A program made the translations under genes and the position numbers. From positions 1 to 64,000 of the forward strand of contig CANJMI010000017.1 in assembly GCA_947475525.1 (NCBI GenBank): DNA of 64,000 nucleotides, given 5' to 3'. Source of the DNA: Polyangiaceae bacterium. Its GTDB lineage: Bacteria > Myxococcota_A > Polyangia > Polyangiales > Polyangiaceae. A model generated the notes under the pieces. The model was not told where the DNA came from. It worked only from the letters and a program-made list of their open reading frames with translations, and ran no database searches. This document shows, piece after piece, positions 29,540-35,352 of the stretch; the first letter of the stretch is position 1, and each line of letters starts with the position of its first letter.

Positions 29540-30769
29540 GTGCGCGCCGTGGCATCCAAGATCCGTGACCGCAACATCGCGCTTATCAACGCGACCATCC
29601 TCCTCGTCGGCGTCGCGTGCGGCATGGCCATCTCGCTGCTTGCGATTCACCTGACCGAGCGCCATTACACCGAGCAACGGATCGGGGCCCTCGCGGCGTG
29701 GTTCGCGCTCGGCATCGTCGGCTTCTCGTTTCCGATGAGTGCGCTCATCGAGCGGGTGACGGCGAAGCGTGCGCTCGTCGCTTCGCTTTTTCTCTATGCC
29801 TTGACCGTGGCGGCTTTTCCTTTTGTGACCCACTCGTTCGCGCTGGCGGCCTTCGTGCGCGTTCTCGATGGCGCGGCGTCGGCCGGGATGTGGATCGGCT
29901 GCGAGACAATCCTCCTTCAGCGCGCCGACAAAGATGAGAAAGCCGCCGTCACCGCGATGTATGCAGCGGCGATCGCAGTCGGCTACATGGTCGGGCCGTT
30001 CCTCTCGAGGCTCGTCGTCACGCTCGTTTCGCTCGAGGCGGCCTTCCTCGTGGCCGGTGTCGTCTCCGCTCTGACGGGCGTGATGGTGCTCCTGCGACTC
30101 GATCCCGACAAGGGCTCCGTCGCCTACGGTTCAGACGGCGCACCGACCGCGACGGCCGCGCCTGCAACCTCGATGGCCTCGGTCGTCTGGCAGATCAAGA
30201 ACTCGTGCTTCGGCAACTTCGCTTACGGATACTTCCAAGCGTCCGTCGTCTTGTTCTTGCCGCTCTACTTGATGGCCTCGAAGGGCATCACGCGCGAGCA
30301 GACGATCATCATTCCGGGGTTCTTCGCGCTCGGCATGCTGACCTTCGTGCGGGTGGCCGGCTGGCTCGGTGATCGCTACGGCCACTTGCTGACGATGCGG
30401 CTCCTCGGTGCGAGCGGTCTCGTCACGGTGATAGGCTTCGTCGTGCTCGATGAGTACTGGATGATGTGCGCCGCGGTCACGATGGCCGGCGCGACAATCG
30501 CCAGCATTTCACCTATCAGTTTGGCTCTACAGGGCGTAATTCTGCCGCCGGCTGAGTACGGGCGCGGCAACGCGATCTACAACGGCTTCTACGCCGCTGG
30601 CATGTTGCTCGGTCCCCCGATCTCCGGTCGGCTCTTCAATCAGTACGGCGGGCCGACGATGCTCTACCACCTGGCGGCGCTCTGGGCGTCGTTCGTACTT
30701 TTCACGCTCGTCTTCGCCAAAGACGATCCCGCGGCCGACAAGGCGAGGCACGCTGCAGGCGCGACTTGA
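29540..30769 (+). CDS. Major facilitator superfamily transporter
   Basis: About 409 residues with roughly 12 hydrophobic helices in two halves separated by a hydrophilic loop (LDPDKGSVAYGSDGAP). MFS features include a central RVLDGAASAGMWIG segment, GYMVGPFLS (motif C-like) and GDRYGHLLTMR at the start of the second half. The subfamily resembles YcaD/sugar or drug transporters. The substrate cannot be read. The start may be GTG 29540 or GTG 29549; no clear Shine-Dalgarno is seen. Divergent from comEC. Confidence 0.88.
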   Translation: MRAVASKIRDRNIALINATILLVGVACGMAISLLAIHLTERHYTEQRIGALAAWFALGIVGFSFPMSALIERVTAKRALVASLFLYALTVAAFPFVTHSFALAAFVRVLDGAASAGMWIGCETILLQRADKDEKAAVTAMYAAAIAVGYMVGPFLSRLVVTLVSLEAAFLVAGVVSALTGVMVLLRLDPDKGSVAYGSDGAPTATAAPATSMASVVWQIKNSCFGNFAYGYFQASVVLFLPLYLMASKGITREQTIIIPGFFALGMLTFVRVAGWLGDRYGHLLTMRLLGASGLVTVIGFVVLDEYWMMCAAVTMAGATIASISPISLALQGVILPPAEYGRGNAIYNGFYAAGMLLGPPISGRLFNQYGGPTMLYHLAALWASFVLFTLVFAKDDPAADKARHAAGAT

Positions 30770-30800: not shown

Positions 30801-31940
30801 ATGCCTCCTCGTGCAACCTCGGCGTTTTTCTTGGGCGCCGTCACCCTTGCTCTTGTCGCCGCCTGCTCGGGTGGCAAGCGCATCCTCCTCGTGTCCGAGG
30901 ATGCCTCGAACGGCGTTGGTGGCAGCGCCGGGACGACGAGCGGCGCGGGCGGGGTGGCTACGATGGGCGCCGGCGGAGCGATGCCAGACGCGACGACCTC
31001 CGCAAGCGCGGCCACCGGTGCCGGGGGCGAGATGCCCCTGATGTGCAGCGGCGGCTCATCGACGTGCGGCTCGACCTGCGTCGATCTCCTCGTCGATCCG
31101 GCTAACTGCGGCTCGTGCGGCAACGCCTGTCCGATTCCACAAGGCGCGACGGCGGTGTGCGTCGCCGCAAAATGTGGATTTGCCTGCAATCCGCCATCGA
31201 AGGATTGCAACGCCAACACCGCGGATGGCTGTGAGGTCAACACCAGCGTCTCGCTCCCCAACTGCGGAGGCTGCGGCTTCGAGTGCCCTGCCTCGCCCCC
31301 TCACGCGATGGGCAAGTGCACCCTCGGTACGTGCGCGCTGACTTGCGGAAGTGGCTTCGCCGACTGCAACGTCAAGGTTGCCGACGGCTGCGAAAGCGAA
31401 CTGGCGAACGACGAGTTGAACTGCGGAAACTGCGGCGTCGCGTGCAACGTGGGCAACAACGAGCACTGCATCGGCGGACTTTGCAAGATGGTCCCGTTCA
31501 ACTACGGCGTGCTCGAGACGAAGGACATCGTCTACTCGGGGCTCCCGTACCTCCTCCTCAAAGTGAAGTACCTCTCGGATACGTCGATCGCCGAAAACTG
31601 GTGCCAGGAGTACACGAACCTCTGCACGTTTTACGGCTACAAGCCGACCGGCTGTGGCCAGCAGTTCAACTCGGGTGGGTATGGGGACTGCAAGTCGAAG
31701 TACCTCTCCGACGGTGTCAGCGACTCGCTTGGCTGCAACGCTTCCGGTGGCGTCCAGTCAGCCGCGCAGCAAAACGGGTACGGCGACGCGGCGGGACATA
31801 ACTCGTTCGCCTTCCACTACTGCAGTGACGGTGCGGCGAGCGGCTGCGGAAAGACGATGTGCAGCGGCCAGTACTGCAACAGTGCACTCAGCTACTTCGA
31901 TTATTCTCAGCCCTTCGGTTACACACTATGCAAAAAATAG
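30801..31940 (+). CDS. Cysteine-rich repeat lipoprotein with novel C-terminal domain (copy 1)
   Basis: A 379-residue lipoprotein (lipobox LVAAC). After a Gly/Ala/Thr linker come four modules of the MXAN_6577-like cysteine-rich type (NCGSCGNAC, NCGGCGFEC, DGCESEL, NCGNCGVAC). The last about 140 residues form a separate cysteine-rich domain starting KDIVYSGLPYLLLKV and including CGQQFNSGGYGDCK, SDGVSDSLGC and CSGQYCN, and ending GYTLCKK. The same domain ends the next gene. The repeat modules are common in myxobacterial secreted proteins; the C-terminal domain was not recognised. Probably surface exposed, disulfide-rich, perhaps adhesive. Confidence 0.85.
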   Translation: MPPRATSAFFLGAVTLALVAACSGGKRILLVSEDASNGVGGSAGTTSGAGGVATMGAGGAMPDATTSASAATGAGGEMPLMCSGGSSTCGSTCVDLLVDPANCGSCGNACPIPQGATAVCVAAKCGFACNPPSKDCNANTADGCEVNTSVSLPNCGGCGFECPASPPHAMGKCTLGTCALTCGSGFADCNVKVADGCESELANDELNCGNCGVACNVGNNEHCIGGLCKMVPFNYGVLETKDIVYSGLPYLLLKVKYLSDTSIAENWCQEYTNLCTFYGYKPTGCGQQFNSGGYGDCKSKYLSDGVSDSLGCNASGGVQSAAQQNGYGDAAGHNSFAFHYCSDGAASGCGKTMCSGQYCNSALSYFDYSQPFGYTLCKK

Positions 31941-31974
31941 TTTGGCAACCGAGCTTTTCGCGATGGAGCGACCG

Positions 31975-33099
31975 ATGAAAATCACGACCTATACCACCGG
32001 CGCCTGGGTCCTCGCGGCGATGACCTTACCGTTCGCGGCGTGTGCGCAGGGGTTGACCGCTGATTTTCGAACGACGATCGAGGCCTCGTCGACTGCCGGA
32101 ACGGGTGGGGGCGACGGCGGCACAACGGGGAGCACCGCCAGCGTAGGAGCGGGTGGCGCGGGCGGCCAAGCGACGACCCCCGTCAGCGCGGCCTCGAGCT
32201 CGGGCTCGGGCTCGAGTGTGTGCGGTCAAAACCTCGCGGATTGTGGGGGTCTCTGCGTGAATCTCACTCACGACCCGAAGAACTGCGGACAGTGCGGCAA
32301 GGCCTGCGCGGCCGGGACCGGCATGACCTCCGTGTGCATCATGGGCGCGTGTGACGCGATCTGCCAACCGGGGCTGGCGGACTGCAACGCGAAGCTCGCC
32401 GACGGCTGTGAGAGCACACTTGCCTTGGATCTCGCGAACTGCGGCGGCTGCGCGAAGGCTTGCGCGGTTCCGAATCACGCCAAGGGCGCCTGCGCGATGA
32501 GCGCGTGTGTGATCGCGACGTGTGATTTCGGCTGGGGCGACTGTGACAAACAGGTGGGCAACGGCTGCGAAGCCGATCTCAACAGCGCGCAGGGCAACTG
32601 CGGGGTATGCGGCAACGCGTGCGGGCAGGGCAAGGCGTGCGTCGCCGGAACCTGCAAGGCGGCGCTGACGAACTTTGTCGTCCAAGATGCAAAGGACATC
32701 GTCTACCAAGGGATAGGCTACCTAGCGCTCAAGGTGACCATCTCGTCCACGCAGTCAGCGAGCGTGGACTGGTGCCAGGATTATACGAACCTGTGCCTCG
32801 GCTACGGCTACCTCCCGACCGGCTGCGGCCAGCAGTTCAACTCGGGTGGGTATGGGGACTGCAAGACCATCTACAAGTCCGATGGCGTAAGCGACTCGCT
32901 TGGGTGCAACCCGTCCGGCGGGGTTTCGAGCGCGGCGCAGCAAGCCGGTTTCGCCGGTGCGGACTCGTCGAACTCGTTCGGGTTCCACTACTGCGGCGGC
33001 ACGTGCGAGAAGACGATGTGCAGCGGGCAGTACTGCAACACGGCGCTCAGCTACTACAGCGCAGACTCGGGCGTCGGCTACACGCTGTGCAAGAAATAA
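31975..33099 (+). CDS. Cysteine-rich repeat lipoprotein with novel C-terminal domain (copy 2)
   Basis: A 374-residue paralogue of the preceding gene, 34 bases downstream. Leader MKITTYTTGAWVL with lipobox FAAC, a Gly/Ser linker, cysteine-rich modules (NCGQCGKAC, NCGGCAKAC, NCGVCGNAC), then the shared domain (KDIVYQGIGYLALKV to GYTLCKK). The ATG at 31975 has GGAG six bases upstream. At DNA level a 39-base run within the C-terminal domain is identical to copy 1 (around 31658 and 32826), pointing to recent duplication or gene conversion. Function unknown. Confidence 0.85.
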   Translation: MKITTYTTGAWVLAAMTLPFAACAQGLTADFRTTIEASSTAGTGGGDGGTTGSTASVGAGGAGGQATTPVSAASSSGSGSSVCGQNLADCGGLCVNLTHDPKNCGQCGKACAAGTGMTSVCIMGACDAICQPGLADCNAKLADGCESTLALDLANCGGCAKACAVPNHAKGACAMSACVIATCDFGWGDCDKQVGNGCEADLNSAQGNCGVCGNACGQGKACVAGTCKAALTNFVVQDAKDIVYQGIGYLALKVTISSTQSASVDWCQDYTNLCLGYGYLPTGCGQQFNSGGYGDCKTIYKSDGVSDSLGCNPSGGVSSAAQQAGFAGADSSNSFGFHYCGGTCEKTMCSGQYCNTALSYYSADSGVGYTLCKK

Positions 33100-33108
33100 C
33101 GCGGTCGC

Positions 33109-33966
33109 TCAGAGCGCGTAGAACAAGGAGATGCTGCCGGTGAGCCACTGCCAGGGCTCGCCGTGGAACGACGTCCCGATGCCAAGGTCCGACAGGGTCG
33201 CCTCCGCGTCCCCGATTTTTCCGCTGCGTTTTCGCGATTCGACGCGCAAGCCCCACGCGGTTTGCAAGGAAACCTGCGGTGCGCCGAGAAATCCGAATGA
33301 AAGCTCGTGGCCGAGCTGCGCGCCTGCACTCAACACAAAGCCGCTGACTCGCAAATCGAGCGCCTGCCCGGTCGTGCTCTCATGGAAGGCGGGGAGGAGC
33401 GTGCGGCTATACCCGAACGAGAACTCGGGAATGAACATCAGGTTGTAGTGTTTGCCCGAGCGCACCGAGATTGGGGCTGCAAGGCGCCCCGCAATGTTGG
33501 TGCGACGTGCGGACGCGCCTTCGCTCGTGCGATCGAGCGCCGGGTCGGGATTGGGAATCATGCGCGTGAAGCTGCCGGTCTCGAAGCCTGCGCCTACGCC
33601 GATGTCGAGGCCTATGGTGTTCGTGGCCCAGTAGCGGATGCCGAAGAGCGGAACGATGGCCTCGTCCGGTGCGATCGTCAGGGTGGCGCTGCCGGTGCCG
33701 TCGATGCTGACGGAGGAGCCGCCGGTGGCGACGGCGGGGATGACGCGCGTGCCGTGGAATGCGAGCAAGAATCGACCGATGTGGCGCTCGTGATCGCTCG
33801 TCGGTTGGGCGATGTCTCCGCGCGCTTCCGCGGGCTGCGGCTCGGCGTCGAGCGAGATCGTCGTGGGCGGCGATTCGGGTTCCCCCGCGTGAACGTTCGC
33901 CGCCGAGACCAACAAGCACGCCCCCGCGCAAACGGCTGCAATCGACTTCATGACGGGCGCGAGCAT
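33109..33966 (-). CDS. Outer-membrane beta-barrel-like protein
   Basis: About 285 residues with a signal peptide (MKSIAAVCAGACLLVSAANVHA) and then amphipathic strands rich in Gly, Tyr and Phe (GRFLLAFHGTRVIP, PLFGIRYWATNTIGLDIGVG, FIPEFSFGYSRTLL) ending in the terminal strand GSISLFYAL. This is the pattern of an OmpA/OmpW-sized outer-membrane barrel; no function can be assigned. The ATG at 33966 is preferred because a TGC-TACAAT element sits five bases upstream; the ATG at 33951 would start exactly at MKS. Convergent with the cysteine-rich lipoproteins, ending nine bases from copy 2. Confidence 0.78.
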   Translation of the reverse strand: MLAPVMKSIAAVCAGACLLVSAANVHAGEPESPPTTISLDAEPQPAEARGDIAQPTSDHERHIGRFLLAFHGTRVIPAVATGGSSVSIDGTGSATLTIAPDEAIVPLFGIRYWATNTIGLDIGVGAGFETGSFTRMIPNPDPALDRTSEGASARRTNIAGRLAAPISVRSGKHYNLMFIPEFSFGYSRTLLPAFHESTTGQALDLRVSGFVLSAGAQLGHELSFGFLGAPQVSLQTAWGLRVESRKRSGKIGDAEATLSDLGIGTSFHGEPWQWLTGSISLFYAL

Positions 33967-33971
33967 ACCCG

Positions 33972-33980
33972 ATTGTAGCA
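33972..33980 (-). promoter_or_regulatory. Extended -10 promoter element (minus strand)
   Basis: TGC-TACAAT read on the minus strand, five bases before the ATG at 33966. Transcription would begin at or within the start codon, giving a leaderless mRNA. Confidence 0.4.
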
Positions 33981-34158
33981 GCGGCGGAAGTTTGCAACGC
34001 GGAGGCGCCTTCGAAGCCGCGGTCGCGCTCATTCACCGTGCGACCCCGATGCGCGGGGGCTAGACTTCGATGCATTCGACGGGCGCGCTTACGCTCTCGA
34101 AGCGATGAACTTCGCGATGCCTCCAACGAGGCGTCGGTGCACGACCGGAGGGTATTCA

Positions 34159-35352
34159 ATGCGGCTTTCTTCGATGTCAGCAGGCCTGGTGGCGGTGGTG
34201 GTCGGTTTCACGGCGTGCGCGTCGCCGGAACCCACTCCTGCAGAATTGGCGGAAGCCGTCGGCTCCGTCACGCAAGCGATCGAGGGTGGCTACCTCGACA
34301 GCGTGGACACCGCCGTCGTCGGAATCGTGACGCTGTCGAACGGCGGGGTAGGCGCGTGCTCAGGCACGTTGATCGCGCCGAACGTCGTTCTTACCGCGCA
34401 ACATTGCGTAGCGACGTTGACGACCGGCGAGCAGGTCGACTGCGCCAAGAGCACGTTCGGGTCGCCCCATCAGGCGAGCTCCATGTACGTCACGACGAAG
34501 GCCGTTCTCTCGCAAAACCCCGCTGATTATCGCGGCGTGAAGGAGGTCATCGTGCCGCTCGAGAAAGGACCGGTGTGCGGCAACGACGTCGCAATCCTCG
34601 TCCTCGTTAAATCGATCGACGCCGCGGATGCGACGCCTCGAATTCCGCGGGTCGACGTACCGGCCGAGCAAGGTGAGCTGTACTACGCCGTCGGCTACGG
34701 GTTGCGCGGCGAGAACGGCCCTTCCGGCACGCGTTATCGCCGTGATCAGCTGAAGCTTCGCTGCGTGGCTGCCGGCTGCAAGTCCTCGCAGGTGGACGAC
34801 GCGGAGTGGTTGGGTGACACCGGCGTCTGCCAGGGAGATTCGGGCGGGCCCGCGTGCGACGAGCAAGACCGCGTCGTCGGGGTCGTGTCGCGTGGCGCTC
34901 CCGGTTGCGCGTTTCCGGTCTACGGGCACGTTGCGTCGTGGGCGGAATTCATCAAGTCGAACGTCGTCAAGGCGTCGGTCGAGGCCGGCCTTCCTACGCC
35001 CGCATGGGCCACCGGTTTTTCGACCGATCGTCAATTTTCTTACCCCATCGGCGCCGCGTGCACCGTCACCTCGGAATGCCCATCGAATGCGTGTCTCGAC
35101 GGTTATTGCACGCGCATGTGTTCGCCTGAAGCGGCGTGCCCGGACGGCTACGAGTGCGCGTCGAACGGCTATTGCGCGCAGACGAAGGCCCCCGTGACGA
35201 CCGGCGGCTCGGGCACGACGACCGAGGTCACGGAAGATGCGGGCTGCTCCTTGACGAGGGGTCAAGATCCGACGAAACCCATCCCGTGGATCGTCACGTT
35301 AGGGGCGGCGCTCGCGTGGTCCGCTCGGTCGCGCTCTCGGCGTCGGGATTGA
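34159..35352 (+). CDS. Trypsin-like serine protease with MYXO-CTERM-like tail
   Basis: A 397-residue secreted S1-family protease. Leader MRLSSMSAGLVAVVVGFTAC, a short pro-region ending QAIEGG, then the protease domain with the triad His in TAQHC, Asp in GNDVAIL and Ser in GDSGGP. A cysteine-rich segment follows (CTVTSECPSNACLDGYC...CPDGYECASNGYC). The tail has a cysteine (DAGCSLTRG), a hydrophobic helix and RSRSRRRD, matching the MYXO-CTERM sorting signal of Myxococcota. The protein is probably anchored at the cell surface. The ATG at 34159 is fixed by GGAGGG six bases upstream. Confidence 0.9.
   Translation: MRLSSMSAGLVAVVVGFTACASPEPTPAELAEAVGSVTQAIEGGYLDSVDTAVVGIVTLSNGGVGACSGTLIAPNVVLTAQHCVATLTTGEQVDCAKSTFGSPHQASSMYVTTKAVLSQNPADYRGVKEVIVPLEKGPVCGNDVAILVLVKSIDAADATPRIPRVDVPAEQGELYYAVGYGLRGENGPSGTRYRRDQLKLRCVAAGCKSSQVDDAEWLGDTGVCQGDSGGPACDEQDRVVGVVSRGAPGCAFPVYGHVASWAEFIKSNVVKASVEAGLPTPAWATGFSTDRQFSYPIGAACTVTSECPSNACLDGYCTRMCSPEAACPDGYECASNGYCAQTKAPVTTGGSGTTTEVTEDAGCSLTRGQDPTKPIPWIVTLGAALAWSARSRSRRRD

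What the first reader, a model, noticed from the sequence alone, without database searches (positions are those of the whole stretch)
30801..33099. Tandem surface lipoproteins sharing an unrecognised C-terminal cysteine-rich domain
Two adjacent lipoproteins have divergent N-terminal repeats but a strongly conserved domain of about 140 residues ending GYTLCKK, with fixed cysteines (CGQQFNSGGYGDCK, CSGQYCN). A 39-base stretch is identical between the copies, implying recent duplication or gene conversion. The domain is the best candidate here for an undescribed family, perhaps adhesive or a toxin-like secreted fold.
Basis: partly seen in the sequence, partly recalled or inferred. Interest (0 to 1): 0.65.

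Follow-up and report, generated by a model that had tools for sequence, protein, structure and literature searches.

The report
New disulfide-rich head on bacterial lipoproteins
Two neighbouring genes of a myxobacterium-like bacterium make lipid-anchored proteins with a cysteine-rich stalk and a conserved cysteine-rich end domain that matches no family we could search, most likely a rare binding head that a few of its relatives share.

Summary
Genes 30801-31940 and 31975-33099 encode tandem lipoproteins sharing a ~145-residue C-terminal domain: 66% identical, against 46% in the stalk and 34% in signal plus linker. The 39-base identity is exact.

I found it in six genomes of one phylum, ten copies, four of them in one 1,767-residue frame. 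Six of six head-bearing proteins with an intact start carry a lipobox-like motif, two of them atypical. The copies share ten invariant cysteines and no invariant acidic residue. The N-terminal repeats are of the known MXAN_6577-like/Stig1-like kind; about 22 frames of this genome carry them, with very different ends.

Best reading: lipoproteins whose disulfide-rich stalk displays an exchangeable binding head, as proposed for TraA. "Recent duplication" is not supported: copy 2 groups with another species' gene at 100/97. Gene conversion has weak support (p = 0.036). Ligand and fold are unknown.

The parts
30801..31940 (+). Lipoprotein copy 1, 379 aa
   Evidence: Open frame; lipobox-like VAAC with Cys22
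31041..31487 (+). Copy 1 cysteine-rich stalk, three ~52-residue repeats, 24 Cys
   Evidence: NF041328 match at residues 70-229, 74.7 bits against a cut-off of 100; repeat spacing 156/159; Cys positions
31491..31937 (+). Copy 1 head domain, 149 aa as queried, 10 Cys
   Evidence: Alignments A1 and A4; AlphaFold2 model, mean pLDDT 84.8
31656..31694 (+). 39-base stretch identical to 32827-32865
31975..33099 (+). Lipoprotein copy 2, 374 aa from ATG 31975
   Evidence: Open frame, GGAG before ATG 31975, lipobox-like FAAC
32221..32661 (+). Copy 2 cysteine-rich stalk, 24 Cys
   Evidence: NF041328 match, 45.3 bits against 100; repeats; Cys positions
32665..33096 (+). Copy 2 head domain, 144 aa as queried, 10 Cys
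32827..32865 (+). Second copy of the 39-base stretch
29540..30769 (+). Upstream neighbour: MFS transporter, 31 bases before copy 1 (context)
   Evidence: Pfam MFS_1 173.4 bits
33109..34032 (-). Downstream convergent neighbour with no Pfam or NCBIfam match at E <= 0.01; called a beta-barrel in my notes by eye only (context)

Best explanation
The two genes encode outer-membrane lipoproteins. Each is anchored by an N-terminal lipidated cysteine, followed by a Gly/Ser/Thr linker and a stalk of three ~52-residue cysteine-rich repeats, and carries a compact C-terminal head held by up to five disulfides. The head is most likely a ligand-binding domain (glycan or protein, in attachment to prey, kin or surfaces) displayed at a distance from the membrane. 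The stalk is a common scaffold in this genome and the head is one of several exchangeable ends. Shown by tool results: architecture, head conservation, stalk family, variety of ends, and presence or absence between species. Inferred: lipidation, outer-membrane and outward location, disulfide pairing, and binding as the function.
For: A lipobox-like motif (permissive pattern, first 45 residues, starts chosen by me) in 6 of 6 head-bearing proteins with an intact start; the seventh, G156, is cut by a contig end. Stalks match NF041328/Stig1, below cut-off here and far above it in the G079 relative (355.9 against 100 bits; 160.3 against 24.1). The own genome has 53 NF041328 matches; in 25 fetched stretches I found 20 frames with at least two repeats, with very different ends, among them an FGE-sulfatase domain (169.9 bits) and a Fibrinogen_C match (24.4 against 22 bits). 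Only two places in the genome encode this head clearly. Four head copies between cysteine-rich spacers in one frame suggest multivalency (Dicty_CTDC repeats). In the G315 genome the gene lies between two like-stalked genes with other ends. Ten invariant Cys and no invariant Asp or Glu among 44 invariant residues. In the congener G158 the same intergenic site is empty: the facing neighbour frames end at 2079 and 2081. For TraA the authors propose that cysteine-rich repeats could be a rigid stalk presenting its PA14 domain (PMC3325183, passages).
Against: No ligand, fold or localisation evidence, so 'binding' rests on architecture. One sister end looks enzymatic (FGE-sulfatase), so an end on this stalk need not bind. 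Two of the six lipobox motifs are atypical: FAAC in copy 2 and GGSC in G079. The head occurs in few genomes (5 of 317 in the class), so it is not essential to the stalk system.
Confidence: 0.55

Rival explanations
1. The head is a highly diverged C-type-lectin-like or Link-type domain: N-terminal hairpin, a Cys-bearing first helix, and a last strand with the closing Cys, without the calcium site.
For: Element order in the better model (hairpin 5-27, helix 37-47 with C38 and C45, last strand 143-148 with C147). The only chain at Z 2 or more among 999 was the Link domain of LYVE-1 (Z 2.2, rmsd 3.8, 77 residues, first to last aligned residue 1-149). Lectin_C domains are common in the class: 37 of 59 genomes. 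The likeness to CTLD topology is recalled knowledge.
Against: Z 2.2 is within noise by the tool's own note and Foldseek gives no E <= 0.001. The first, poorer model gave no chain at Z 2 or more. The profile comparison with 30 Lectin_C domains of the class gives E 0.086, and 4 of 60 column shuffles score as high. No Lectin_C or Xlink match in the Pfam scan of six heads.
Confidence: 0.2
2. The head is an enzyme or toxin-like effector displayed on the stalk.
For: The disulfide-rich secreted form suits a toxin; a sister stalk protein carries an FGE-sulfatase domain; a PAAR-motif gene lies upstream of the G159 copy.
Against: No invariant acidic residue and only one invariant His in ten copies. I saw no immunity-like partner beside it by eye, but made no search for one. 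Four copies in one frame and a lipid anchor suit binding better.
Confidence: 0.15
3. A structural envelope protein: the head only caps or cross-links the disulfide-rich stalk and has no outside ligand.
For: Strong conservation without a recognisable site; the head sits between cysteine-rich spacers in G500.
Against: The genome has about 22 stalk frames but only two clear copies of this head, and the cassette is absent from the syntenic site of G158.
Confidence: 0.1

Closest known systems
MXAN_6577-like cysteine-rich proteins (NCBIfam NF041328) and Stig1 (PF04885) repeats
   Same: The N-terminal stalk repeats: NCG-CG-C spacing and DC-N-DGCE blocks.
   Different: In the window proteins these models match the N-terminal part only; the head lies outside. 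The window proteins score below both curated cut-offs.
TraA of Myxococcus xanthus (PA14 head, cysteine-rich repeats, MYXO-CTERM)
   Same: A recognition-type head with a cysteine-rich repeat region proposed to be a stalk (PMC3325183, abstract and passages).
   Different: No PA14 match; anchored by an N-terminal lipobox, with the head at the C-terminal end.
C-type-lectin-like / Link domains
   Same: Rough order of secondary structure and one marginal structural match, LYVE-1 Link Z 2.2.
   Different: No sequence or profile support; no invariant acidic residue.
Dictyostelium repeat proteins (PF00526)
   Same: The G500 frame holding four head copies has six Dicty_CTDC stretches, 74.3 bits.
   Different: The window proteins have no such match up to E 10, and the head is not part of that family.

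Membership tests
NF041328 MXAN_6577-like cysteine-rich protein | Whole-protein score over the curated 100 bits | tested here: not met
   74.7 and 45.3 bits. The G079 relative meets it, 355.9. The stalk is related; the protein is not filed as a member.
Stig1 (PF04885) | Gathering score 24.1 bits | tested here: not met
   19.5 and 23.5 bits; the G079 relative scores 160.3.
C-type lectin / Link (PF00059; Xlink, accession PF00193 recalled) | Sequence match to the family model | tested here: not met
   Six heads scanned, no such match listed up to E 10; hhalign against 30 Lectin_C domains E 0.086 with 4 of 60 shuffles as high.
C-type lectin / Link fold | Loop-in-a-loop fold with helix-1 to last-strand disulfide | tested here: inconclusive
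   One chain at Z 2.2; model coordinates were not at hand for inspection.
TraA | PA14 domain | tested here: not met
   Pfam scan of both proteins up to E 10 lists only Stig1.
TraA | TIGR04201 repeats and MYXO-CTERM tag | tested here: inconclusive
   The NCBIfam scan up to E 10 lists only NF041328, but that this release holds those two models is recalled and was not checked.
Bacterial lipoprotein | N-terminal signal with lipobox Cys | tested here: met
   By a permissive motif only: VAAC (copy 1) and FAAC (copy 2), and 6 of 6 head-bearing proteins with an intact start. No signal-peptide predictor was at hand.
Outer-membrane surface lipoprotein | Outward exposure | not testable with these tools
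   Needs fractionation or surface labelling.

The most novel reading that the evidence does not exclude
The head is a new disulfide-stabilised fold confined to Myxococcota and horizontally shuffled among species. It would be one of a whole repertoire of undescribed heads on a common cysteine-rich lipoprotein stalk, a modular recognition system for prey or kin.
Probability: 0.25. Interest if true: 0.7.

Novelty: new variant of a known kind. Interest (0 to 1): 0.42.

Why it matters
If right, a class of bacteria that holds social and predatory members displays many different heads on a shared cysteine-rich lipoprotein stalk, several of them outside Pfam. The window adds one sharply bounded head family, with ten aligned copies and a usable model, that can be expressed and tested directly. 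How these bacteria recognise prey, kin or surfaces is, to my knowledge, little known beyond TraA and pilus tips, so heads like these are concrete candidates.

Tried and rejected
Known family: rejected. Pfam on the two proteins and on six heads gave no accepted match for the head; ArdcN in one of six heads (E 0.049) and at 12.8 against 22.6 bits is below its cut-off. The PDB sequence profile search gave one match at E 0.59 with no stretch passing. Foldseek PDB and BFVD gave no E <= 0.001.

Shared ancestry of this head with the L088-type head: hhalign E 0.068, but 5 of 60 column-shuffled controls score as high; the reversed alignment scores lower (12.6 against 15.9). Against Lectin_C: 4 of 60 shuffles as high, reversed 11.0 against 14.2. 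L088-type against Lectin_C: E 0.02 over 11 columns, no control run. None of these is claimed.

Phage or plasmid origin: no match in viral contigs (pattern scan), plasmids or phages.

Recent duplication: rejected on the tree, where only 1 of 7 inner branches is well supported, the one joining copy 2 with L006. Gene conversion: run of 13 identical codons, permutation p = 0.036. An earlier count split the run at alignment gaps and gave 7 codons, p = 0.67; one search corrected this.

Weak matches (E 0.0036 or above) were short or low-scoring and were not counted as members.

Papers: no held paper contains MXAN_6577 or NF041328. Stig1 with myxobacteria gave one paper, PMC9839799, whose passage is an unrelated list of peptide labels. 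Broader searches listed nothing on this head among the papers shown (one search listed none). Passages of PMC3325183 and PMC6626042 were read; all others were seen as listings only.

Full report
What is there. The window lies in a 5.15 Mb genome of 59 contigs. Myxococcota, class Polyangia, is my inference from gene content and from named relatives such as 'Polyangiaceae bacterium' and 'Myxococcales bacterium'. Two genes on the + strand, 30801-31940 and 31975-33099, follow an MFS transporter gene by 31 bases and each other by 34 bases. A convergent gene (33109-34032, -) and a trypsin-like protease gene (34105-35352, Pfam Trypsin 73.5 bits) follow. Each product has a signal with a lipobox-like motif, a Gly/Ser/Thr linker, a 24-cysteine stalk and a 10-cysteine head. 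The proteins are 49% identical: 34% in signal and linker, 46% in the stalk, 66% in the head.

The stalk is of a known kind. Pfam lists only Stig1, below its gathering score (19.5 and 23.5 against 24.1 bits). NCBIfam lists only NF041328, MXAN_6577-like, below its cut-off (74.7 and 45.3 against 100 bits). The stalk of the G079 relative scores far above both cut-offs, so the link is real. The window's own genome has 53 NF041328 matches at E <= 0.001, the window's own included. I fetched 25 stretches around matches outside the window. In 19 of the 25 a simple pattern finds 20 frames with at least two repeats; in 6 of 25 it finds none. With the two window genes that makes about 22. Their C-terminal ends differ. 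Of ten ends scanned with Pfam (nine of this genome, one from G315), one has an FGE-sulfatase domain (169.9 bits), one a Fibrinogen_C match (24.4 against 22 bits), one a sub-threshold DUF4215, and seven have none. FG-GAP-like, RCC1-like and propeller-like ends were recognised by eye only.

The head is unclassified. Six head sequences have no accepted Pfam match and no PDB sequence match. A ten-sequence alignment gave an AlphaFold2 model of mean pLDDT 84.8 and pTM 0.84. The other four of its five models averaged 66 to 73, and the earlier six-sequence model 70.2, so confidence in the best one should be tempered. Foldseek found no match at E <= 0.001 in PDB or BFVD. VIA-align over 999 chains gave a single chain at Z 2 or more, the LYVE-1 Link domain at Z 2.2, rmsd 3.8, 77 residues, which the tool's own note places within noise. 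Comparison of profiles with 30 Lectin_C domains from the same class does not support kinship (E 0.086; 4 of 60 shuffles score as high).

Distribution. With the ten-sequence profile, 5 of 317 class genomes hold a clear copy (E <= 1.1e-67) and 3 more have only weak matches (E 0.02 to 0.03). In a phylum sample searched with six sequences, 2 of 377 hold clear copies, the window's genome and G500, and 10 more have only weak matches; the other four holders are not listed there and were presumably not drawn. In G500's own class it is 1 of 52. In all, six genomes hold ten copies: two in the window's genome, one each in G156, G159, G079 and G315, and four in a single 1,767-residue frame of G500. Members and noise are widely separated. 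Named sources are groundwater, Baikal and other metagenome-assembled genomes; the G500 record is titled 'uncultured proteobacterium', while its handle says same phylum. Eukaryotes could not be searched except through Pfam and PDB.

History. The tree of ten heads has one well-supported inner branch of seven, joining copy 2 with the G159 gene at 100/97. So the two window copies were probably already separate before those species split, and the tandem pair is not a recent duplication. The 39-base identity spans 13 codons and includes less used ones (GGT 0.15, GGG 0.23, TAT 0.21 in six window genes); permutation among identical residues gives p = 0.036. The pair shares 71 of 95 synonymous choices, while copy 2 and its closer protein relative L006 share 56 of 103. 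This fits limited gene conversion, but genes of different genomes can share as many (L007 and L017, 72 of 91), so common codon bias is not excluded. In the congener G158 the neighbours are syntenic and the site is empty: the transporter frame ends at 2079 and the facing frame at 2081. In G159 the single copy sits beside the same convergent gene and protease, but transporter matches lie on other contigs. In G156 the copy is at a contig start, and its convergent gene and protease lie on another contig without it. The cassette is accessory.

How it most likely works. A lipid anchor, a flexible linker and a disulfide-rich stalk would hold the head off the membrane; the head would bind a partner. 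[quoted passage not shown] The four-fold head in G500 and, in G315, three neighbouring genes with like stalks and three different ends suit multivalent or exchangeable binding. Among 44 invariant residues none is Asp or Glu, which speaks against a calcium-type lectin site and against common catalytic sets. The partner, the outward location and the disulfide pairing are inference.

Verdict. The protein as a whole is a new variant of a known stalk-and-head plan, and the mechanism remains to be tested.

Noticed in passing
L051:3975-7700 (G315, Baikal MAG): Three neighbouring lipoprotein genes with like cysteine-rich stalks and three different C-terminal ends, the middle one carrying this head.
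   Followed up: partly
L088:2906-3268: Another head type (PWVVC...ICQ-LGY...CGYC...TVMWTC) without a Pfam match, in 23 of 192 class genomes at E <= 1e-5; 30 copies were aligned (matches without a locus were left out).
   Followed up: partly
L089:1685-5060: Two adjacent stalk proteins with a further, similar unclassified end (C...CxSVGL...CTA-RDAFG).
   Followed up: no
L050:1203-2585: PAAR-motif protein with a long C-terminal part, upstream of the G159 copy of the lipoprotein with one other long frame between.
   Followed up: no
window 34105-35352: Trypsin-like protease whose C-terminus (GCSL...hydrophobic stretch...RSRSRRRD) resembles by eye a sorting tag of the MYXO-CTERM sort; the NCBIfam scan lists no such match.
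   Followed up: partly
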